A DNA stretch of 64,000 nucleotides from Glandiceps talaboti (taxonomy: Eukaryota > Hemichordata > Enteropneusta > Spengelidae): contig NC_135549.1 of assembly GCF_964340395.1 (NCBI RefSeq), positions 23,451,842 to 23,515,841 of the forward strand. The letters are read 5' to 3'. The translations under genes and the position numbers were made by a program. Positions within the stretch are counted from its first letter, which is position 1; every line of letters begins with the position of its first letter. Shown here one piece after another: positions 343 to 56,981 of this stretch. Below the pieces are notes generated by a model. The model was not told the origin of the DNA. It saw nothing but the letters and a program-made list of their open reading frames with translations, and made no database searches.

Positions 343-535
343 AAAGTGCAGCCAGCTCTGACACTCAAAATAAGTATACACAGGGCAGCCAGCACTGTAC
401 TCCCCAATAAAAGGGCTGCCTGCACCGATACTCACTAATAAGAGGGCAGCTAGCACTGATACTCACTACCGAAAGGGGCAGCCAGCACTGATACTCACCA
501 ACAAAAGGGCAGCCGGCTCTGACATATACTGATGG
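343..535. repeat. 31-bp minisatellite, short allele
   Basis: About six degenerate copies of a 31-bp unit that begins GGGCAGCCAGCACTGATACT and continues CACCAATAAAA. The same unit is present in roughly 30 copies at 19.5-20.5 kb. There are no unique spacers between the copies. Confidence 0.85.
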
Positions 536-2970: not shown

Positions 2971-3624
2971 ATAGCTATTACCTTTGTTATTTCATTGGAA
3001 TACAAAGTATACAAATGTTCATGGAGTTCTTCTTTTCGAATTCATGTCTTTCAGGCAATGGAGTATAGATTATCTATGCTTGGAAAGAATGCATTTTGGA
3101 CTATTGGTATATAGATATGCAAGTTTGTATAACGAAGGCCATATTTACGTATTTCTTAAAAAACAACAGAACAAAAAATATGGGTTTTACTTTAAGAAAT
3201 GTATCCCCATCATTTCATAAAAAAAGGGAGAGAATGTTTTGTAGTGTACCTGCCTCCCACATTATGAATGAATCATTCTCGGATATGTCGGTACAAAAAT
3301 CAGACATAGGGCCTGGGGTGTCAAATGTTCATGTGTTACCTATTCAAAACCTTCATGAACCAGTATATAAGCAGGTGAGACAAAAGGTGTAGTCTCTTCC
3401 CCTGGCCACTAACCAAGAAGTCGGAGTTGTCTTAGCGAGACAGTCATATATATCAGAAACTGGAAGCAGTTACCCTGCCACTGGAGCCAACATTGTAGTT
3501 ACACGCATCTGTTTTGTGAAGTCCACAGTACAGCCTAAGTAATGCATAAAATGGACAGGTAGGCATTATACCTAATTGGGTTCCATGACACGTTAGTTCA
3601 ATTGGCGGCCCCAACTGTTCTTTG

Positions 3625-3689: not shown

Positions 3690-5762
3690 TAAACATCCCT
3701 CTGTTCTGTAGCATAACATGAGTCAATAGCATTTGTTAAAAGCATTTGTTGACACTGCACTGTCCGGTAGCTTGTTCGATTTACTCTACATGTAAAGAAG
3801 TGTTTACAGATGTCGCGTCGCGCATATGGTTTCTGGAGTTTATTTGAGTGTCCTCTTGTTGAGTGATATTCTGCAGTCTGAAAGCGTAGCTTGCATTGGT
3901 CAATATTGTTGATAAGTTTATATACTTGGATCATGTCACCTCTACATATTCTCTGACTCAGTGTTGTCAACTGTAACGGTCTCAATCTTTCTTCATACGT
4001 GAGGTTCATCATACCGACTACCATCTTTGTAGCTCGTCTTTGTACTTTCTTTAATTGTGAAATTGTTAATGGAATAATAAAGTTTGGATTCATTTTTGCT
4101 TTGGAAGATACGGTCTGAGGCAAGGGGCGTCTATCTGCTCCCTGACTGGGCCACTTCTAAACGATCCAGGTTAACCATGAACATTGTGTGTAGTCTGAGC
4201 TAATTCCCTAAAAGTCCAAGTCTATCCCGGAGTGAGAGAGACTAACATTGGAGGAGGGTTATGTTAACAGTAGAGGTCATCCCTCTAATTTGTTACAAAA
4301 TGTCTCTCTGTAGTGACCATGCCCTGAATGGAAAATTCCAGTTGAGGTCGAACAAACTGTTTATAAAGCCTTCACTGTGAAGGACCTTTTAATCAATCCA
4401 AGTGTTCGGTTTGCCTTTTTTGCTGATTCAGCACATTGAACGGATGGTTTCAGTGACTCGTGTACAATGATTCCTATGTCCTTTTCATTTGGTACTGTTG
4501 TGAGTATAGATCCCTCCATTGTATATTCCATTTTTGTGTTTCTCGTACCTACATGCATGATCTTGCATTTTGCTACATTACAACTCTATCTTGCCCATTC
4601 ACATACTATTCGGTGATTTTAATCTGTAGTACTTCATGGTCTTGACGTTTGGCTACTGGTGTGTACACTTTTGCGAATTTATTGATGCTAGAGGTTACAC
4701 CCTGATCGATATCATTAATGTATATAAAAAATAACACTGGTCCAAGAACGGCGCCCTAAGGCACACCGCTTGTTACATCTTGCCATTGAGAACAACATAT
4801 TGCTTTCTGTTACTCAGCCATTCCTGGATTCATTTTGCAATCTTCCCACCAATTCCAAGGCATTGTATTTTCTTGAAAAGTCTTACATGTGGTACTTTGT
4901 CAAAAGCTTTGGTAAAGTCGAAATAGATAATGTTCACTGCCGTATGCTGTCAACTGCTTTTGTTACATCCTCTAGGAATTCAAGCAAGTTTGTCAGACAC
5001 GATCTGTCAGAACGGAAACCATGTTGTGTGTTTGTGATTATGTTATTTAGTTCTAAATGCTTTGCAATTTCATCTCTAAGACATGTCTCGAGTACCTTGC
5101 CAACCACCGGTGTGAGGCTGACCGGCCTGTAATTTCCAGGGCTTGACTTGGATCCTTTCTTGAATATTGGGGTAATGTTTGCAACTTTGCAATCATGTGG
5201 GACTTCGGAGTTTTGTACAGAGCTGTTGAAAATGACTGCGCTAATATGTCTGCAGATTCTTTCAGTATCATTGGATAAACTTGATCAGGACCCGGTGACT
5301 TGTTGGGATTTGATGACTTCAAATGTGCATATACTGTATCTTCCGTTATGAATATATCTTGTAGGTTACTAGCAGTAATACCCATGTCCATATTGCCTGG
5401 TTGGGGTACATTTATCGTGTCCTCCCTCGTGAAAACTGGTGTGAAAAACTGGTTGAGCTCATTGGCTATACTTAAATCATTACCACAAATTGTTCTGCTG
5501 TCCCTTTTGAGTTGATAAATCGATTCTTTTGCTCGTTGCTTTGATCTAATATATGCATAGAAAGCTTTTGGGTTTTTCCTACAGTTCTGTGTCAAGTTAA
5601 TCTCGTAGTTCTAGATCTCCTTTGCTTTCTTTACTAGTTTTGTACATTCCTTTTGTACACTTCTGTATGTTGTATAGTCGTCTTTATGGTTGGAATTTAC
5701 ATATTTCTTTCATAATTTCATCTTTTTCCTTATCACTCTGAGTAAATCATTTGTCAAAGTTC
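3690..5762 (-). pseudogene. CR1-type LINE reverse transcriptase, C-terminal half of ORF2
   Basis: Minus-strand reading from the hinge: LTNDLLRVIRKKMKL, then a stop replacing Trp, then KKYVNSNHKDDY; later KNPKAFYAYIRSKQ, NKSPGPDQVYP, TPIFKKGSK, NYRPVSLTPVVGKVLE (after a frameshift), GAVLGPVLFFIYINDI, PNEKDIGIIV, AESAKKANRTLGLIKRSF, and KVQRRATKMV followed by RGDMIQVYK. These are the ordered motifs of CR1/L2-type reverse transcriptases. At 4,670 the catalytic motif reads KFAKVYTPVAK, where the family has FADDTKVY, so three codons holding both catalytic Asp are gone. Stops and frameshifts are scattered throughout. Confidence 0.9.
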
Positions 5763-5763
5763 C

Positions 5764-5865
5764 TTCTTCTTCTTCTTCTTCTTCTTCTTCTTCTTCTTCT
5801 TCTTCTTCTTCTTCTTCTTCTTCTTCTTCTTCTTCTTCTTCTTCTTCTTCTTCTTCTTCTTCTTC
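5764..5865 (+). repeat. (TTC)34 microsatellite at the 5' edge of the Tx1 LINE
   Basis: Thirty-four uninterrupted TTC units. The CR1 reading frame resumes on the left, and the Tx1 5' UTR starts on the right at about 5,867. The other side of the Tx1 element is bounded by (TTC)5 at 11,797-11,811. Read on the minus strand the tract is GAA/AAG, matching the Lys-rich linker of the CR1 protein. It is therefore the likely target, later expanded. Confidence 0.92.
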
Positions 5866-6074
5866 TTGTAGTAGTAGAAGGAGTTCTAATAGTCGCTCTC
5901 AGTTCGTTGTTGGATTTTCCGGTAGTTTGGACTTTCCTTGCCACAATTTTCAACATTTCGAGGAGTTATTGTCTACTGCACCTTTTTGGAGGATTATCAG
6001 TGCCAAGTATCAGTGGATTGCTGAGATTTTTGCAGATTGTTTTTTGGTGATTGTCACCTTCTCAATCGGCCAAT

Positions 6075-7763
6075 ATGGCGGCCGTGCGAGCGCCGCCTTA
6101 TGGTTATGGTGATGACCACACCTTGGTTAAATTGACCATGAAGAATGCCGTAAAGATGGAGAGCATAGAAGGTGTAAGTGTTAATAACTATGTGGAAAAG
6201 ATAGCTGAATTGGTACAAGAAAATGAAATACTAGCCGCTTCAAGAATGAACAAATCAGTGGTTGTTTTTCTGAAAACGATTGATTTAGTTGATAAGGTAT
6301 GCACAACCGGACTGACAATAAGCGATGAATTTGTCCAGCCCCAACCGATGGTTAAACCAGCTACAAAGGTAATACTATCCAACGTTCCACCTTTCCTTCC
6401 TCACAGTTTACTTGCTGAAAAACTAGAACAATTTGGAAAGGTAATTTCAACAAGTTTCCGATTTATTCCACTTGGTTGTAGAAAACAAGGTCTCCGACAT
6501 GTGAAATCCTTTCGACGCCAGGTGTTCGTTATTATGAAACAAAGCAATATCAGTGGTGTTCTACATATTCTCTATGGTGGACAGAACTATCAAATTTACA
6601 TTTCTACTAATGAAGTCAGATGTTTCCACTGCAAAAACAATGGTCACATACAGAAAAACTGTCCTTACATACAGCGTGATGGTGTGGCTGAATTAACAAA
6701 TCAGAGAGATTCCGCCAATCAGGATTCAGTGGATAGACAAAATAACACCGGGGAAGAGAGCATTGCTGAAAAACTGGTTCATCAGAATCAAAAGTCAACA
6801 GATGACATTAACGGAGACGACACTGATCTGGATAACGCTACTGAAAGTGCTAGTAACATCGTCGACGGAGACGAACCAAACTCACAATTTGACATCGGGG
6901 AAATGATAACTGAACAAATATATGACAACATGTCTCAACCTTCCACAAGGAAAAATAAACGTGGCAGATCCCCTAGCCCCGATCAAAGCTATGCATCCGT
7001 AACTCCTTCTGAAAAAAAGCGGTGTGACAAGGATAAGGAACCCGACGATCGATCAGTACAACCGTCTCCTACAACATCGCATGATCAGAACGAGGTGTCA
7101 GATGACAAAGGTACCCCTCCTACAAAAGAAGATAAACAGACTAAAACTGCCGATGAAGAAAGGGTACGACCCCCTCCTTCGCATTCAACCCAGAATCGTG
7201 ACCCTGATGAAGAGAGAGTAAACACCCCTCCTTCAAATAAAAACGGCATTGATGAAAGCTCTACAGGGGAGTTTGTATCTCCGTCTGCAAAACAATCTGT
7301 GTCTTTTGAAGAGGATACGTCATGGCAACGTCAGCCATTGATATCTCTCCATGAACCTGATAACAGTCATCAAAGTATACCGTGTAGCCTTCCGTCCTCA
7401 TATCCTCCTCCATCTGGGATTCCAATACAGAATTCATATTCTGTCCTCACCGATGTTGAAGAATCAAGTCAAGATGATGATGCTGAATCATTTTGCTCGA
7501 CTTTTTCCGATCTGTCGGCGGTCAGCGACGTATCTGACCAGTCAGTTGTGACACTGTCCCAGAAATCACTAGTTGAATTCATCGAAGAAATCAAATTTTC
7601 AAAGAAAGCTATAGAAAAATCACAGGAATATTGTTCCGATTTAAAATTGCTAATAAAATCCCTGTCACACCTTCATAAATCAGGTGTTCTTTCCAGTCGA
7701 CAGAAAACCCGAGTTGGGAAATTGGTACAGAAAATCAAAGTCCACCTCAAACATACGAACTAA
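6075..7763 (+). CDS. Tx1-type LINE ORF1 protein (RNA-binding)
   Basis: A 562-residue ORF starting at an ATG in good context (A at -3, G at +4). An in-frame TTG at 6,051 also extends the frame but is an unlikely start. Residues about 97-175 have the look of an RRM-like fold (VILSNVPPFLPHSLLAEKL, then KHV-like RHVKSFRRQVFVIM), typical of Tx1 ORF1. One CCHC zinc knuckle follows at 183-196 (Cys183, Cys186, His191, Cys196; spacing C-x2-C-x4-H-x4-C). Residues 200-490 are a hydrophilic Ser/Pro/Asp/Glu-rich linker, and the last 60 residues are a basic, probably helical tail. By family, it binds the element RNA to form the retrotransposition particle. The stop lies 2 nt before the ORF2 ATG. Confidence 0.92.
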   Translation: MAAVRAPPYGYGDDHTLVKLTMKNAVKMESIEGVSVNNYVEKIAELVQENEILAASRMNKSVVVFLKTIDLVDKVCTTGLTISDEFVQPQPMVKPATKVILSNVPPFLPHSLLAEKLEQFGKVISTSFRFIPLGCRKQGLRHVKSFRRQVFVIMKQSNISGVLHILYGGQNYQIYISTNEVRCFHCKNNGHIQKNCPYIQRDGVAELTNQRDSANQDSVDRQNNTGEESIAEKLVHQNQKSTDDINGDDTDLDNATESASNIVDGDEPNSQFDIGEMITEQIYDNMSQPSTRKNKRGRSPSPDQSYASVTPSEKKRCDKDKEPDDRSVQPSPTTSHDQNEVSDDKGTPPTKEDKQTKTADEERVRPPPSHSTQNRDPDEERVNTPPSNKNGIDESSTGEFVSPSAKQSVSFEEDTSWQRQPLISLHEPDNSHQSIPCSLPSSYPPPSGIPIQNSYSVLTDVEESSQDDDAESFCSTFSDLSAVSDVSDQSVVTLSQKSLVEFIEEIKFSKKAIEKSQEYCSDLKLLIKSLSHLHKSGVLSSRQKTRVGKLVQKIKVHLKHTN

Positions 7764-7768
7764 CTATG
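7761..7768 (+). promoter_or_regulatory. ORF1 stop / ORF2 start junction (TAA-CT-ATG)
   Basis: ORF1 ends TAA and ORF2 begins ATG only 2 nt later, in a different frame. This is the geometry for termination-reinitiation by the same ribosome. Mechanism inferred, not shown. Confidence 0.5.
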
Positions 7769-10700
7769 GCTTTGAACAGACTTTATCTAATAACAATGGT
7801 GTGCCTGACGCTGTCAACATTTAACGCACGTGGGTGCAGGGATGCTATGAAACGTTATGAAACCTTCGAATTTCTGAAAAATAATCAAAGATCAGATGTC
7901 TATTATGTCCAAGAAACCCACTCTCAACCTTCTGATGAAGATGTATGGAGATTGATCTGGCGTGGACAAGCTGAATTCTCACATTTAGCTTCAAATAGCG
8001 GAGGAGTTGCGATATTGTTTTCACCCAAAATGAAAGTTGATATTGTAGAAACCCGGTCTGTTATACCAGGCAGACTTCTTTACGTGAAAGCAGTCGTCAA
8101 TGACCACATCTGTAACTTTATCAACATTTATGCGTCGGTTGATCATAATGAACGACTAAATAATTTTATTGTACTAAAAAGACTCTTAAATGAACTTCGA
8201 AATAATGAAACTATTATACTAGGGGGTGATTTCAATTGTACGATAGACGCAGGTAAAGATAGACGAAACGGGAAAGAACCAGATCAAAAATGTGTAGACT
8301 TCCTGTCGAATACCATCAATAGATTCAAATTAGTTGATGTCTGGAGACGTTTCCATGGTGATGATTGTGCCAACTACACTTGGAGGAGACAGAACAGTGC
8401 AGCAAGACTCGATCGCTTCTATATACCTAAAAACTTTTGTAGTAGAACCCAGTCTGTTTCTATAGAACCTGGTATCAACTCTGATCATGCTTTGGTAAAG
8501 CTTGTAATGTCACAGACACAATTTAAACAACGTAGTTCAAGTTGGTGTCTGAACACTGAGTTATTATTAGATGAAGAATATTGTAATTTAATTGAGGAAT
8601 TTTGGTCACGTTGGCAATCTTGTAAAGTATCGTATAATTCACTTCAGCTATGGTGGGACATGGGAAAACTTAAAATCAAGCAATTGACACAACAATATTG
8701 TATTGAAAGGAAAAATCGTAAAGAAAATTTAAAGCGCGATCTTGAATCCGAATTACATAATCTTGAACTGTCGCGTACAAACGGAGACAATGTCACTGCT
8801 GCTATTGATGAAAAGAGAAATCTATTGGACAAAATCATGAAATCACAGGTGCAAGGAGCAGTGATTAGGTCAAGATTCAAACAGCTGAACGAAAGTGACA
8901 CTTCAACCTCGTTCTTCTATGATTTAGAAAGGTACAGGGGAACAAAAAAACTTATGACACATTTACGTCTTCCAGACGGAGAAATTACGGAAAATCCGTC
9001 GGAAATCCGTCAAATTGCAAGAAATTTTTATTCTGAGTTGTACGCTCCGGATGAAATTTCTACTGAAGCTCAAAATCTCATTTTGGACGATTTACCAAAA
9101 CAAGATGAAGAACACAAACAGTCCCTAGACATGCCAATTACTTATGAAGAGTTAACTGACTCACTTAAGCAACTTGGGAGAAACGCTTCTCCAGGTATCG
9201 ACGGGTTACCGTCAGAGTTTTATCAAAAGTTTTGGCATCTCATTGGGAAAGATTACCACGACGTTTTTACTGGCGCTATCGATGATGGGCTACTCCCTCT
9301 ATCATGTAAAAGGGCGATTTTGACTTTGATTCCAAAAAAAGGAGACAATAGCCTGATCAAAAATTGGCGTCCCGTTTCGATTCTTTGTTCGGATTATAAA
9401 ATACTGACCAAAGCTCTTTCGTTACGCCTCCGGACAGTGCTCAGTAGTATTATTCATATTGATCAAACATACTGCATTCCTGGCAGACATATTTCTGATA
9501 ACATTAACCTTCTGCGTGATTCAGTTCACTATGCAAATGAACAAAATATACCTCTCGCTATTTTGTCGTTGGATCAAGAAAAGGCTTTTGACCGTGTCCA
9601 CCATAACTACCTGATCAATACATTAAGTGCATTTGGCTTTGGTCCAACCTTTATTAAGTACATCCAACTTTTATATTCAAACACAGAGAGCTTACTGAAA
9701 TTAAACCATTCGCTGACCCCTCCGTTATCGTTCAGTCGTGGAATTCGACAAGGGTGTTCCCTATCTGGTCAACTGTACTCAATCTGCATTGAGCCTCTGC
9801 TTCATAAAATACGTTCGCAGAGTAGCATGCGTGGACTCGAACTTCCTAAGTCTAACGGAAAACGCTGCCATTTGTCAGCATACGCAGATGACGTTAACTT
9901 TCTAATTACACGTGACAATGACTTAAAAGAATTACAGCATTGGCTTAATATTTATGAGAAGGCTTCCAATGCTCGTATCAATTACTCCAAATCTGAGGGT
10001 CTATGGTGTGGTCGCTGGGGAAAGCGTAGCGATACACCCATGGACATTAAGTGGTCATCAAAAGGCCTAAAGGTTCTGGGTACTTTCATTGGTAACGAGA
10101 ATTCATACGCTGAAAAGAATTGGGATGGTGTAGTTCGAATAATTGACGAAAAATTAAATAACTGGAAACGTTATGCGACAGCAATATCTTATCGTGGTCG
10201 TGTCTTAGTGACTAATCAGCTTGCCGCTACTAAGATCTTACATCGCTTAGCTGTCATGTCTCCACCTAAGGAAGTTGTCGAAATCCTTCAACAGAAAATT
10301 GAAAACTTTTTTTGGCAGGGGCGTCATTGGGTGGCGAAGGAAACTCTGTATCAACCCGTAAAGAAAGGAGGACAAGGTCTCATTCATATCCAATCTCGTT
10401 TAAAGGCATTCAGATTACAATATCTTCAACGTTATCTGTACATGGATAAAGAGCACCCGTGTTGCTACTTTACCGACTACTACTTAGGAAAAGTTGGGAT
10501 GCTAGGTTACGACAAACAGCTTTTCTGCGTTGACCTAACCAAGTTACACGTAGATCGAGATTCTCCAACTTTCTATCACGAACTGTGGATGACTGTAACA
10601 TGTAAAGATATTGACATCAATCGAAACGGTGAACCCACAACAATTGGAGAAATTCTAAATGAACCAATTTTCCTGAACAATTTGATTATAAATCCAATTA

Positions 10701-11680
10701 CAAGACATTCGTTTTCTCCAGACAAATTTGCAGAATCTGGCTTGACTAAAGTTACAGACCTTATCCATCTAACTGAAAGAAGGTGGAAAACTCCACAGGA
10801 GCTATCGTCCTCTCTTACAATTCATTCGCGTCGCATTATTACATTGAAATTAAATACTTTTCAGCAAGCCATTCTGAATAGGTTTGACGACAAAGTAAAG
10901 TCATTCTTTGATAATCAAATCTCAACCGACGATCTCTCATCACGGAATACACGTTACCACTACACACTTAGTACTACAACTGAAGGTAAAGAGCACGACA
11001 TCCAATGTTGTCTCTACAAGCTCGAAAAAGGTGTAATTTACAAATTTCTAATCGAAAATCTTCTAGCTAATTCTGACAGACTAAGTAGTATTTGGGTAGA
11101 CTTATTGTCAACCCCCCTAAATATAAAACCTAACTTTGGCATTATTTATGACACTCCTGTTTACAAGAAAGAGGGCGACATACAGTGGCGCTTCCTTCAC
11201 GGTGCTATCTCCACGGGTACTTACTTACATTCAGCTGGTTACACTGACAATGATAACTGCCCTTTCTGTAACAGCAATCGCGATACTTTACTCCATATGT
11301 TTGTAGAATGCGTAAGGCTTCAAGATTTTCTCCGCATTATTGAGAAACTGGTGGAGAAAATTAGCGGTGACGATATAGTTCCTCAAATTTGGTATATTTT
11401 TGGCCCTCCATATAGAAAAGGCCAAAAAGCTGTTATGCGTTTGATTAACTTCATTTTCATAAATGCTAAACTTGCCATCCATGTTTCGCACTACAACAAG
11501 TTGAAAGAGAAATCAAACATTGATGTTCTTGACTTATTTAGATCACGTCTAAAGTCGCGTTTAATGGTTGAATTCCAATATTGCCAATTTACCGGCAACC
11601 TGTTACACTTCCAAACGTTTTGGGCAATGAATTCAGCCCTCTGTAAGGTCAAAAACAATGATATCCTTTTCTGTATATAG
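7766..11680 (+). CDS. Tx1-type LINE ORF2: endonuclease and reverse transcriptase
   Basis: An uninterrupted 1,304-residue polyprotein. The N-terminal APE-like endonuclease shows the STFNARG start, catalytic Glu50 in VQETH, GGDFN at 153-157 and SDH at 239-241. The reverse transcriptase follows: SPGIDGLPSEFY, LIPKKGD then NWRPVSIL, Asp603 in LDQEKAFDRVHH, RQGCSLSGQLYS, and YADD at 706-709. The Tx1/L1-type thumb motif KVLGTFIG is present. Near the C-terminus a CCHC-type finger (CPFC...H...C) lies at about 1165-1182. By family it nicks the target and primes reverse transcription there. The length is normal for Tx1 elements, and no stop, frameshift or catalytic substitution is visible. The closest well-known relatives are Tx1 of frogs and the microsatellite- or RNA-gene-specific Tx1-like families. 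Confidence 0.95.
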   Translation: MALNRLYLITMVCLTLSTFNARGCRDAMKRYETFEFLKNNQRSDVYYVQETHSQPSDEDVWRLIWRGQAEFSHLASNSGGVAILFSPKMKVDIVETRSVIPGRLLYVKAVVNDHICNFINIYASVDHNERLNNFIVLKRLLNELRNNETIILGGDFNCTIDAGKDRRNGKEPDQKCVDFLSNTINRFKLVDVWRRFHGDDCANYTWRRQNSAARLDRFYIPKNFCSRTQSVSIEPGINSDHALVKLVMSQTQFKQRSSSWCLNTELLLDEEYCNLIEEFWSRWQSCKVSYNSLQLWWDMGKLKIKQLTQQYCIERKNRKENLKRDLESELHNLELSRTNGDNVTAAIDEKRNLLDKIMKSQVQGAVIRSRFKQLNESDTSTSFFYDLERYRGTKKLMTHLRLPDGEITENPSEIRQIARNFYSELYAPDEISTEAQNLILDDLPKQDEEHKQSLDMPITYEELTDSLKQLGRNASPGIDGLPSEFYQKFWHLIGKDYHDVFTGAIDDGLLPLSCKRAILTLIPKKGDNSLIKNWRPVSILCSDYKILTKALSLRLRTVLSSIIHIDQTYCIPGRHISDNINLLRDSVHYANEQNIPLAILSLDQEKAFDRVHHNYLINTLSAFGFGPTFIKYIQLLYSNTESLLKLNHSLTPPLSFSRGIRQGCSLSGQLYSICIEPLLHKIRSQSSMRGLELPKSNGKRCHLSAYADDVNFLITRDNDLKELQHWLNIYEKASNARINYSKSEGLWCGRWGKRSDTPMDIKWSSKGLKVLGTFIGNENSYAEKNWDGVVRIIDEKLNNWKRYATAISYRGRVLVTNQLAATKILHRLAVMSPPKEVVEILQQKIENFFWQGRHWVAKETLYQPVKKGGQGLIHIQSRLKAFRLQYLQRYLYMDKEHPCCYFTDYYLGKVGMLGYDKQLFCVDLTKLHVDRDSPTFYHELWMTVTCKDIDINRNGEPTTIGEILNEPIFLNNLIINPITRHSFSPDKFAESGLTKVTDLIHLTERRWKTPQELSSSLTIHSRRIITLKLNTFQQAILNRFDDKVKSFFDNQISTDDLSSRNTRYHYTLSTTTEGKEHDIQCCLYKLEKGVIYKFLIENLLANSDRLSSIWVDLLSTPLNIKPNFGIIYDTPVYKKEGDIQWRFLHGAISTGTYLHSAGYTDNDNCPFCNSNRDTLLHMFVECVRLQDFLRIIEKLVEKISGDDIVPQIWYIFGPPYRKGQKAVMRLINFIFINAKLAIHVSHYNKLKEKSNIDVLDLFRSRLKSRLMVEFQYCQFTGNLLHFQTFWAMNSALCKVKNNDILFCI

Positions 11681-11796
11681 AACGTCGTTGTGAACTTCAT
11701 CAGTTATTCCTTGTTTACCTTTGCAGATGATGTAATTTTAATGTAATTTGTAAATTTTGTATAGTCGCATTAAACGTATCTGTGAAAATCAAAATC
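11681..11796 (+). other. 3' UTR of the Tx1 LINE
   Basis: A 116-nt tail after the ORF2 stop, A/T-rich, ending in a short A-rich direct repeat (AAAATC twice) that meets the TTC tract. There is no AATAAA and no poly(A), as expected for an element whose RNA end pairs with, or is recognised at, its microsatellite target. Confidence 0.7.
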
Positions 11797-11811
11797 TTCT
11801 TCTTCTTCTTC
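11797..11811 (+). repeat. (TTC)5 at the 3' edge of the Tx1 LINE
   Basis: Five TTC units, then CTCC, then the CR1 hinge in the minus frame (FIPTRRKKKKK). This is the right-hand half of the microsatellite target. Confidence 0.9.
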
Positions 11812-12790
11812 CTCCTTGTTGGTATAAACTCGTCACTTGCTTTAGATAATGCGTTTCTATAAGGAACCACCATTTTGCTTCTGTATTTTTTAGTTTGTCT
11901 AATTCCTGCCATGAAGTGTTAGTTAATGTGTTTTTTATTCCTTCCATATCAGCACCCTCAGGCATTTCTTGTCTTCATTTTCTGGCAATATGACAACACC
12001 CATCCACATTACAAATTCTACAATTACATGACCACTTGCTCCCAAATGACCATTTGACGTCAAATATCATTCCCTTTTCACTGGACAATACCAAGTTTAG
12101 ACAGTTTTCTGCTCGGGTTGGGAAGTTTACATGTTGTACCTTGTATCAGAAATCTGTCCTGTATCGCTTCCATAAAACTGCACCGATAGCTGCTAGAGTT
12201 CAAGGTTTCTCAATCAATGTCTGGATAGTTGAAATCACCTGCAATAACCACTTGGTTGTTACTTATTTCTTGTATGAATTTAATCAAACTATTGTTGTTA
12301 AGTTCACTGCTATTTGGATATCTGTAGATTACTCAAAGTAGTAAAGGTGGGCTGTGTTGAGCTTTAACTCTATACCACACTGAATTAGGAAAGTTACAAC
12401 TTTGATAAATGTTGATAATTTGAATATTGTCCTCTTCCTCCTTGTGTGGCCATCCTATCTTCTCGTACTGGTAAGCGATAACCTTCTATGAGAAGTTCTG
12501 CATTAGATACATCTGCGTGAGTACCGCGAGTCCACGATTCAGTTATTGCAATGACATCATAGTTGTACTCATGTACAAGCCCTTTCAACTCATCAACTTT
12601 GTTCATAACACTCTGGGCATTTGTATAAAACCATTTCAATCCTGAAATTATGTTCTGGTAAATTTCCTGTATTGCATCCTGATCCTTTTTCCATCTACCT
12701 GCCTTTGTCTGGTTTCTTTCTGAAGTATGATATTCAATAACTGTTTTCCTTCTATCCATACTTGGACAAATAAATATGTTTTTAATAATT
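11812..12790 (-). pseudogene. CR1-type LINE endonuclease, N-terminal part of ORF2
   Basis: The minus strand reads LKWFYTNAQSVMNKVDELKG and DVIAITESWT at about 12,640-12,530, the classic start of the CR1 APE-like endonuclease. VVIAGDFNYPDID, then a stop in place of Trp, lies near 12,240-12,205. A decayed GASGHVIVEF is present near 12,050, where the family has SDH. The hinge ending in poly-Lys lies at 11,912-11,812. Several frameshifts and stops show long decay. Confidence 0.85.
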
Positions 12791-18659: not shown

Positions 18660-19375
18660 ATGAAATTTAAACAAAGAAAGACGTTAACAATTTATAAAAA
18701 CTATCACAATGCCAAGTATAATGTATGGCACAAGAATTAATATCAATTGATACAGCTCTCCTGATGTGAATTGGGAGAGAGTTCCATAACTTATTAGGAC
18801 CGGCTACAGAGAAGGCGCGATCTCCGTACGTAGTAGTTGCGCCAAGCAGGATGGTAAGTGTAAACTGAGTGCCGGAACGTAAAGTACGCGTTGGCTGTGA
18901 ACGGTTAACAGTTCAGTGATGTAGGATGGTGATAGTTTGTTGACAGCGGCCTTGTACTGGTGTTGTCGAGGTAGTTCCGAATTTGGCCGATCTTTCGAAT
19001 GGCTAGGGATGCTGCTCTGCAGATGTTATTTACATGACAAGTCATTCGAAGTTCCGAGTCAAGTGTCACCCCAAGGTCACGTGTTGTGGATGATGTGTTG
19101 ACAGTACTGTCACCAATTGTGATACACGGTATAGGATTGGTTTTACTAAAACGAGATGAGAAGTAGACTATCTCTGTCTTGCGGTCATTGAGCTTTAAAT
19201 TGCTCATGACTGTGTTCATGTGTTGTGATCGTTTCATCATCTGGTAAAGTTGAGAGTCATCAGCATACATCATACTGTTTAGATTGTATTGTGAAATCAG
19301 TTCCTCCAAGGGTGTGACATACATGATAAAGAGTGTGGGGCCTAGAACTGATCCCTGTGGAACTCCGAAGTTTAA
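18660..19375 (-). pseudogene. L2-type LINE fragment (reverse transcriptase C-terminal part)
   Basis: The minus strand reads NFGVPQGSVLGPTLFIMYV, then MMYADDSQLYQM with an intact YADD box, LNDRKTEIVYFSSRF, TRDLGVTLDSELRM, HVNNICRAASLAIRKIGQIR, and further down GDRAFSVAGPNKLWNSLP. These are the ordered motifs of an L2/CR1-type reverse transcriptase from the B box to the C-terminus. It is 5'-truncated and internally damaged (sequence lost between RNYLDNT and GDRAF). It ends where copy B of the duplication begins. Confidence 0.85.
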
Positions 19376-19544
19376 GCTAAGTTTATTTGGTATGATTTTA
19401 AAGAGGGACGATTTGATACGTCACCGGCTATCAACACTGGTATTTTAAAACTTACCAATTAAATATGGGGCAAATACCATAGCTGACATTTCAAAATAGA
19501 AATGGCAACCAGAACTAATACATACTTACCGATACTCACCAATA

Positions 19545-20540
19545 TAAAAATGGCAGCAAGCAGTGATACACACCAATAAAAGGACAGCTAGCACTGATAC
19601 TGACCAATGTAAAAAGTCAGTCAGCACTGGTACACACCAATAAAAGGGCAGCCAGCTGTGATACTCACCAATGAAAAGGCGGCTAGCACTGCTACACACC
19701 AATAAGCATGCAAGCAACACTGATACTCACCATAAAAGGGGAGCCGGCCCTGATACTCATAAAAAACCGGTTGTCAGCACTGGTACACAGTCACCAATAA
19801 AAGGGCAGCCAGGTCTAATACTCACGGATAAAAAAAAGCAGCCAGCACTGGGACACACCACTAAAAGGGCAGCCAGGTCTAATGCACACCATTAAAAGGA
19901 CAACCAACACAGATAATAACCAATGAAAGAGCAGTTAGCTCTGATACTCACCAATAAAAGGGCAGGCAGCACTGGTACAAGGGCAGCCAGCTCTGATACT
20001 CACCAGTAAAAAGGGCAGCAAGCTCTGATACTCGCCAATAAAAGTGCAACCAGCACTGGTAGCACTGATTCTCACCAATAAAAGGGCAGCTAGCACTGAT
20101 ACTCACCAATACAAGGGCAGCAAGCTCTGATGCTCACCAATGAAAGGGCAGCCAACACTGGTATACACCAATAAAAAGGCAGCCAGCACTGATACTCGCC
20201 AATAAAAGGGCAGATAACACTGGTACACACCACATCGAAGGGGGTCAGCACGGATAATCACCAATAAAAGGGCAGCCAGCACTGGTACTTAAAAATTAAA
20301 GGGCAACCAACACTGATACTCACCAATAAAAGGCCAGTTAGCACTGATAATTACCAATAAAAGGACAGTCAGCTCCGATACTCACTAATAAAAGGGCAGC
20401 CAGCTCTGATACTCACCAATAAAAGTGCAGCCAGCGCTGATACTCACCAATAAAAGGGCAGCCAGCAGTGGTACAAATTAGTAAAAGGGGGCAGACAGCA
20501 CTGGTACACACTACTAAAGGGCAGCCAGCACTGACTTATA
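19545..20540. repeat. 31-bp minisatellite, expanded allele
   Basis: Roughly 30 copies of the unit seen at 343-535, with substitutions and a few partial units. Every consensus unit contains CCAATAAAA on the plus strand and, read on the minus strand, TTATTG|GTGAGTATC, a consensus 5' splice donor. The repeats run head to tail with no spacer. Confidence 0.92.
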
Positions 20541-31931: not shown

Positions 31932-35699
<3,768 letters not shown>

Positions 35700-53684: not shown

Positions 53685-54092
<408 letters not shown>

Positions 54093-55887: not shown

Positions 55888-56012
55888 ATGCCTGTAGAGA
55901 AATACAATGTAAATGATGATGTATGTAATGTATATGTCTAGGCATGTTTAATTCCTGTGCACACCATCACCGCGATACTGATATTCCATGAATACGATGC
56001 GACGCAACTTCA

Positions 56013-56103
56013 TTCATTCATTCATTCATTCATTCATTCATTCATTCATTCATTCATTCATTCATTCATTCATTCATTCATTCATTCATTCATTCATTCA
56101 TTC
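56013..56103. repeat. (ATTC)n microsatellite
   Basis: About 22 tetranucleotide units just upstream of the EGF-gene start. Confidence 0.97.
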
Positions 56104-56981
56104 ACCAAGAACCCATACTCCATTTACTTAATTAAGCCAGTTTGGCAGAAAACAGCAGTGAATACCCAACACAAAATCATATTCAGACGGCAGCGGCCAC
56201 GAAAACAAAATTAAAGTATCAGAAAATTGATTCTTGTAATCTGAATATATTCAGCTCGAAATGATGCTATACGGCTTAGTTGTGAGTTGCCCTGGCAACC
56301 ACTAGCACACATGTACATGTATAGGTAATGAATGAAGGAGTCCAGACCTTGCGCAGACGACACCTCTTAATGCGTATAATGGAAACTGAAAATACGTCTT
56401 GAGGCTTTCTGCATATATTGATTTCTATCAGTAGCACCGTAACTGGTGATGCCAAATGATATTCATATATATTCATAAACAGTGAACATATAATTTATGT
56501 CGTTTTCGTGGGTTGATTAATTTTATTGATTAATGTTTCGTGAAAACACCCAGGTGGACAATTACACGAATTATTTCTTGAATTGTCTCCGAATAATTTA
56601 TATTAGAGTTGATCAGACTAAACGGTATAATAAGTAAGAAATATGATATTTTGATTCTGGAAAATCACTCTATTTAAAAAAAAAATAAGACCATAAAATC
56701 ACGAGTCTAATAATCAGAGTAAGTTAGGAGAAATGAGGTAAGAGATTAAAAGTACATAGACGACCTTCAAATAACCGACATTGCAGTGGTTGTTTTCGTT
56801 CCCACGAATGGCCATAGCACTCGTGTGTGATCTACACAATTTTCTAAGATTTCTTAAGTTACTTCTTTACGTAAAATTCGCCAACGCAAATAGATGACGT
56901 ACATATATACACGACAAATGATATATTACCCTCAAAAGAAGAGCAGTCGGCACCTCCCTGACTACTCTTGCCATCCACACC
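56104..56981. other. No gene seen upstream of the EGF-type gene
   Basis: May include the promoter, but no TATA, CpG cluster or known element stands out. Confidence 0.4.

What the first reader, a model, noticed from the sequence alone, without database searches (positions are those of the whole stretch)
5764..11811. Intact Tx1-clade LINE seated exactly inside a (TTC)n microsatellite
The element's UTRs meet TTC units on both sides (34 left, 5 right), and there is no poly(A) tail. Both ORFs are complete with endonuclease, YADD and zinc-finger motifs. Tx1-type families are known for strict target choice, including one described for (TTC)n. This looks like a full-length, possibly active member.
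Basis: partly seen in the sequence, partly recalled or inferred. Interest (0 to 1): 0.85.

Follow-up and report, generated by a model that had tools for sequence, protein, structure and literature searches.

The report
Tx1-type LINE inside a TTC repeat
A complete jumping gene of the Tx1 type sits inside a run of TTC repeats within the remains of an older jumping gene; the kind is known, and whether this family always aims at TTC repeats could not be tested because no second copy could be fetched.

Summary
A 5.93 kb LINE (window 5868-11794, + strand) lies between the only two TTC/GAA tracts of 12 bp or more in the 64 kb window: (CTT)35 at 5763-5867 and 17 bp of TTC repeat at 11795-11811. ORF1 (562 aa, CCHC knuckle) is homologous to Xenopus laevis Tx1 ORF1 (40% over 186 aa). 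ORF2 (1304 aa: AP-type endonuclease, YADD reverse transcriptase, C-terminal CCHC) groups with fish proteins named YTX2/TX1, apart from human L1. It is Tx1-clade, with both ORFs open and no poly(A).

That linker is 6-16 residues long in all 98 relatives where it could be measured (120 examined of 340 hits). Most of the present roughly 40-unit array is therefore expansion.

Not shown: TTC specificity as a family trait, or activity. There is no second copy in the window, the genome search did not complete (24 tries), and no DNA of close relatives was available. TTC targeting by Koshi is recalled, not read. Verdict: probably a new member of a known kind; moderate interest.

The parts
5763..5867 (+). 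(CTT)35 / (TTC)34 perfect array at the 5' side of the element
5868..6074 (+). 5' UTR (207 bp), begins GTAGTAGTAGAAGGAG
   Evidence: boundary set by the end of the TTC array, not by comparison of copies
6075..7763 (+). ORF1, 562 aa, zinc knuckle CFHCKNNGHIQKNC at residues 183-196; Tx1-type ORF1
   Evidence: (zf-CCHC 17.6 bits, below Pfam's cut-off of 20.8)
7766..11680 (+). ORF2, 1304 aa: AP-type endonuclease (residues about 14-247), reverse transcriptase with YADD (706-709), C-terminal CCHC (1165-1182)
11681..11794 (+). 3' UTR (114 bp), no poly(A); no significant RNA fold (z -0.55 for 11678-11809)
11795..11811 (+). TTC tract at the 3' side, 17 bp of pure repeat
11852..12639 (-). host relic: endonuclease part of the LINE that the element interrupts (CR1-like is my label, by recalled motifs; no clade test)
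   Evidence: (best E 4e-16); the Pfam endonuclease hit is weak (E 0.094, below cut-off)
3698..5763 (-). host relic: reverse transcriptase part of the same LINE; 50 of 120 relatives match both halves, 120 of 120 match this half

Best explanation
A full-length Tx1-clade non-LTR retrotransposon with both ORFs open, which inserted by target-primed reverse transcription into a (TTC)n/(GAA)n tract. The tract arose from the Lys/Arg-coding (AAG)n linker between the endonuclease and reverse transcriptase of a dead LINE. Most likely its endonuclease prefers TTC tracts, as recalled for Koshi: it nicks the GAA strand, and a UUC-ended read-through transcript can pair with the GAA primer, which would explain the TTC in place of a poly(A). 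Shown: element anatomy, Tx1 kinship, TTC on both sides, the split host LINE. Inferred: the endonuclease preference, the priming step, present activity.
For: Both TTC/GAA tracts of 12 bp or more in 64 kb (2 of 2, also with one mismatch allowed) abut the element's two ends. Host LINE coding resumes at the tract on the right (FIPTRRKKKKK) and, read by eye against relatives, within about a codon of the array on the left (GTLTNDLLRVIRKK); 50 of 120 relatives match both halves. ORF1 matches Xenopus Tx1 ORF1 at E 3.2e-30 in the database search and 40% over 186 aa. ORF2 falls in a 30-row set (bootstrap 100, SH-aLRT 99) that holds the fish proteins named YTX2 and TX1, in a 53-row tree that also holds human L1. 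Catalytic and zinc motifs are present and both ORFs are open (motif meanings recalled). A clam relative (L001, 33% identity) lies directly against U2 snRNA, so a repetitive target occurs among relatives.
Against: One copy only. The microsatellite hides any target-site duplication. Simple repeats are common in this window (45 TRF rows, some overlapping), so an array as such is not special. The 35-to-5 asymmetry and the short linker of host relatives mean most of the array is not ancestral host sequence. No named TTC-specific family could be compared. The U2-inserted relative falls outside the window's 30-row set, and within that set the tie of the window's 7 rows to the named fish rows is weak (85/89).
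Confidence: 0.65

Rival explanations
1. The TTC runs belong to the element or its RNA rather than to the target: a (UUC)n 3' tail added or templated at priming, like the simple-repeat tails of other LINEs (recalled), and a 5' array carried over from the source copy or grown by slippage. Site choice would then be loose.
For: 35 of the roughly 40 units lie on the 5' side. Relatives of the host LINE have only 6-16 residues in the whole linker (98 of 98 measurable, of 120 examined), so most of the array cannot be ancestral host sequence.
Against: The insertion point falls in the host's Lys/Arg linker, which by itself is AAG/AGA rich: the right flank reads TRRKKKKK in the host frame. So the target was probably TTC-like in its own right.
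Confidence: 0.2
2. A Tx1-clade LINE without TTC specificity that landed once by chance in a TTC tract.
For: Only one copy was seen; relatives' targets are unknown, apart from one relative against U2.
Against: Outside the element and the two counted arrays, at most 7 of 57953 window bases lie in TTC-like tracts, and these are edges of the same two tracts; a random hit in one is very unlikely. [quoted passage not shown]
Confidence: 0.15

Closest known systems
   Same: Tx1 clade, AP-type endonuclease, TTC microsatellite at both ends
   Different: Sequence not available here, so direct kinship is untested; the window's nearest ORF2 relatives are 46-47% identical and without species names
Xenopus laevis Tx1 (ORF1 = YTX1_XENLA, P0319)
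   Same: ORF1 homologous over 186 aa at 40% identity, including the zinc knuckle
   Different: Tx1L is recalled to sit in another transposon (Tx1D), not in TTC; ORF2 of Xenopus was not among the listed results; in the ORF1 tree Xenopus is on a long separate branch
Keno (U2 snRNA-specific, Tx1 type; PMC6136364 and PMC4640811, passages read) and the clam element L001
   Same: LINE of the same wider group, abutting a multicopy target (Keno's AP-type endonuclease: PMC4640811; the L001 fragment starts after that domain)
   Different: Target is U2 snRNA; L001's ORF2 is 33% identical and lies outside the window's 30-row set

Membership tests
Tx1 clade of non-LTR retrotransposons | ORF2 reverse transcriptase groups with Tx1-type proteins, apart from L1 | tested here: met
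   (53 rows): 30-row set with YTX2/TX1-named fish proteins, 100/99, human L1 on the other side; window in a 7-row subset, 100/99. (114 rows): 53-row set, SH-aLRT 99. Names are those given by the sources; Xenopus Tx1 ORF2 itself was not in the set.
Tx1 clade of non-LTR retrotransposons | Tx1-type ORF1 with zinc knuckle | tested here: met
   YTX1_XENLA, E 3.2e-30; 40% over 186 aa; CX2CX4HX4C at residues 183-196.
Tx1 clade of non-LTR retrotransposons | AP-type endonuclease, RT, C-terminal CCHC in ORF2 | tested here: met
   PF03372 1e-10, PF00078 2.1e-34, PF13966 7.8e-08; motifs.
(TTC)n-specific Tx1 family (Koshi type) | Flanked by TTC on both sides in this copy | tested here: met
(TTC)n-specific Tx1 family (Koshi type) | Independent copies all in TTC tracts | not tested
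   No second copy in the window; the genome search 'own' not answered in 24 tries; the search for related loci found none in viral contigs and one distant clam relative in genome contigs.
(TTC)n-specific Tx1 family (Koshi type) | ORF2 nearest to Koshi/Kibi | not testable with these tools
   No protein bearing either name in the listed results (120 of 144 hits listed, most without names); literature searches listed no paper on these elements other than ones citing the 2004 work.
L1 clade proper | RT groups with human L1; L1-type ORF1 | tested here: not met
   A 100/99 branch separates the window's 30-row set from the rows with human L1, which was also the chosen root; Pfam found only a weak zinc knuckle in ORF1, no L1-type ORF1 domain.

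The most novel reading that the evidence does not exclude
The element helps build its own target. It entered a short Lys/Arg codon tract (at most about a dozen AAG units) in a dead LINE, and the 35-unit array on its 5' side came with or after insertion, copied from a UUC-bearing transcript or grown by slippage at the junction. Each jump would thus seed a new landing site.
Probability: 0.12. Interest if true: 0.6.

Novelty: new member of a known kind. Interest (0 to 1): 0.38.

Why it matters
Target-specific Tx1 LINEs are used to study how AP-type endonucleases choose sites (recalled). A copy with both ORFs open and a readable host context (a LINE whose protein layout is known from relatives) would let one ask whether microsatellite targeting is an endonuclease trait, and whether such elements lengthen the repeats they live in.

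Tried and rejected
Plasmid collection: no match. 3' UTR RNA structure: no better than shuffles (z -0.55; 59 of 200 shuffles as good). Rfam on the window: none at gathering threshold. Target-site duplication: cannot be read in a repeat. Literature for a TTC-targeting Tx1 paper: none held; the Tx1L endonuclease paper PMC85248 is not held. Passages of PMC5753468, PMC7140322 and PMC8869645 and of PMC4176376, where TX1 names a mutant construct, added nothing decisive; PMC3747384 (passages) says the Tx group has two branches, one with frog Tx1.

An artefact reading (chance ORFs next to a microsatellite) was rejected: no stop in about 1866 sense codons against about 121 expected, and database relatives that cover ORF2 at its full length and the conserved N-terminal part of ORF1.

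Limits and rows dropped: one search scored only the 7988 candidates sharing most words and listed 120 of 144 hits; one search listed 120 of 340; one search scored only 7995 candidates and listed all 99 hits. RT tree: 112 of 121 candidate rows (120 proteins plus L001; those with under 400 aligned positions left out) plus window and human L1; 53 of those 114, chosen by hand to span the tree. ORF1 tree: 96 of 99 plus window, midpoint root for drawing only. Host linker count: 98 of 120; 14 truncated before the site, 8 without the marker Trp. Looser first counts (44 of 120, 51 of 120) were discarded because their patterns matched wrong places or missed rows.

Full report
Observation. Between window positions 5763 and 11811 lies a LINE framed by TTC repeats: (CTT)35 on the left, 100% pure, and 17 bp of pure TTC repeat on the right. 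These are the only two TTC/GAA tracts of 12 bp or more in 64 kb, also when one mismatch is allowed. The window is otherwise rich in other simple repeats (45 TRF rows, some overlapping), so the array itself is unremarkable; its placement is not.

Anatomy. 5' UTR of 207 bp; ORF1 6075-7763 (562 aa) with a CX2CX4HX4C knuckle; two bases; ORF2 7766-11680 (1304 aa) with an AP-type endonuclease, a YADD reverse transcriptase and a C-terminal CCHC; 3' UTR of 114 bp; no poly(A). A random frame of this composition would hold about 121 stops; none is present inside the ORFs. The endonuclease stretches FNARG, QETH, GGDFN and NSDHA and the RT stretch LDQEKAFDRV are in place (their roles are recalled). The match to solved human L1 ORF2p runs over residues 14-877 at E 6e-74.

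Kinship. ORF2's best relatives are 46-47% identical and bear no species names; the named ones include fish YTX2, TX1 149 kDa and pol-like proteins (120 of 144 hits listed). In a 53-row tree rooted on human L1 the window falls in a 7-row set (100/99) inside a 30-row set (100/99) with those fish proteins; the inner link between the two is weaker (85/89). The larger quick tree of 114 rows agrees. ORF1 matches the Xenopus laevis Tx1 82 kDa protein at E 3.2e-30, 40% over 186 aa. In the ORF1 tree, which has no outgroup, both lie on the same side of a 100/98 branch, 17 rows against 80, though Xenopus sits on a long branch of its own there. This places the element in the Tx1 clade.

Host site. The flanks are the two halves of a degraded LINE on the minus strand: endonuclease part at 11852-12639, reverse transcriptase part at 3698-5763; 50 of 120 relatives match both halves. 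I call it CR1-like from recalled motifs; no clade test was made. On the right the host frame reads ...ASDEFIPTRRKKKKK straight into the TTC tract; on the left the array is followed by GTLTNDLLRVIRKKMKL, which by eye matches the start of the RT region in relatives. Relatives carry a basic linker of 6-16 residues, median 11, mean K+R 0.41, between that Pro and the conserved Trp (98 measurable of 120 examined). So the element most likely entered a short Lys/Arg codon tract, (AAG)n on the minus strand, which is (TTC)n-like on the plus strand. The present roughly 40 units exceed what such a linker could have supplied; the array grew before, during or after insertion. The frames on the two sides differ, so the array or the relic has also had an indel.

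Mechanism (inferred). Target-primed reverse transcription at a nick in the GAA strand, possibly helped by pairing of a UUC-ended read-through transcript with the GAA primer. This would give TTC at the 3' end instead of poly(A). Whether TTC is the family's rule is untested.

A relative with another target. The one locus that could be fetched, L001, is a LINE fragment in a contig filed under a bacterial symbiont of Taylorina (that this is a lucinid clam is recalled). Its 3' UTR ends against U2 snRNA from about position 3523 (Rfam U2, 129.9 bits), and the contig's far end reads like the start of another U2 copy (judged against the U2 consensus). Keno is described as U2-specific, of Tx1 type, with 3' flank TCTGTTCTTATCAGTTTAAT (PMC6136364, passages read), and known from frogs, fish, lancelet and hydra (PMC4640811, passages read). 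L001 is thus probably a Keno-like element of the clam host. It falls outside the window's 30-row set. Utopia, a LINE of another kind, uses the same U2 site, but L001's RT groups with AP-type relatives.

Literature. [quoted passage not shown] PMC10294476 reports L1-Tx1 elements in 35 mollusc species and 14 L1-Tx1 entries among the Repbase LINEs it counts (passages read). The 2004 paper by Kojima and Fujiwara, recalled as the one that named Koshi and Kibi, is not held; that Koshi targets (TTC)n is recalled.

Verdict. Real, ORFs open, Tx1-clade, in a TTC tract; specificity likely but unproven; a new member of a known kind. The split host LINE with a readable linker is the useful extra, because it gives the approximate state of the site before insertion.

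Noticed in passing
L001:3497-3678 and 5310-5340: LINE fragment in a contig filed under a clam-symbiont bacterium ends directly against U2 snRNA, with what reads like the start of another U2 copy at the contig end: probably a Keno-like U2-inserted element, and host contamination in that bacterial genome.
   Followed up: partly
window 382-522 and 19531-20534: The same 31-bp minisatellite unit (AGGGCAGCCAGCACTGATACTCACCAATAAA, rotated) occurs in two arrays about 19 kb apart, 4.5 and 32 copies.
   Followed up: no
window 18893-19420, - strand: A second LINE reverse transcriptase remnant that matches the host LINE's relatives at about 30% identity.
   Followed up: no
window 33466-33563, 53951-54016, 56009-56104: Long perfect microsatellites of other motifs (GA, TA, TTCA), besides longer imperfect ones; repeat growth seems easy in this genome.
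   Followed up: no
window 5922-6075: 3 of 99 ORF1 relatives align in frame upstream of the ATG at 6075 (from 5922, 6021 and 6027), across an in-frame TGA at 6048-6050, so part of the 5' UTR resembles coding sequence in those relatives.
   Followed up: partly
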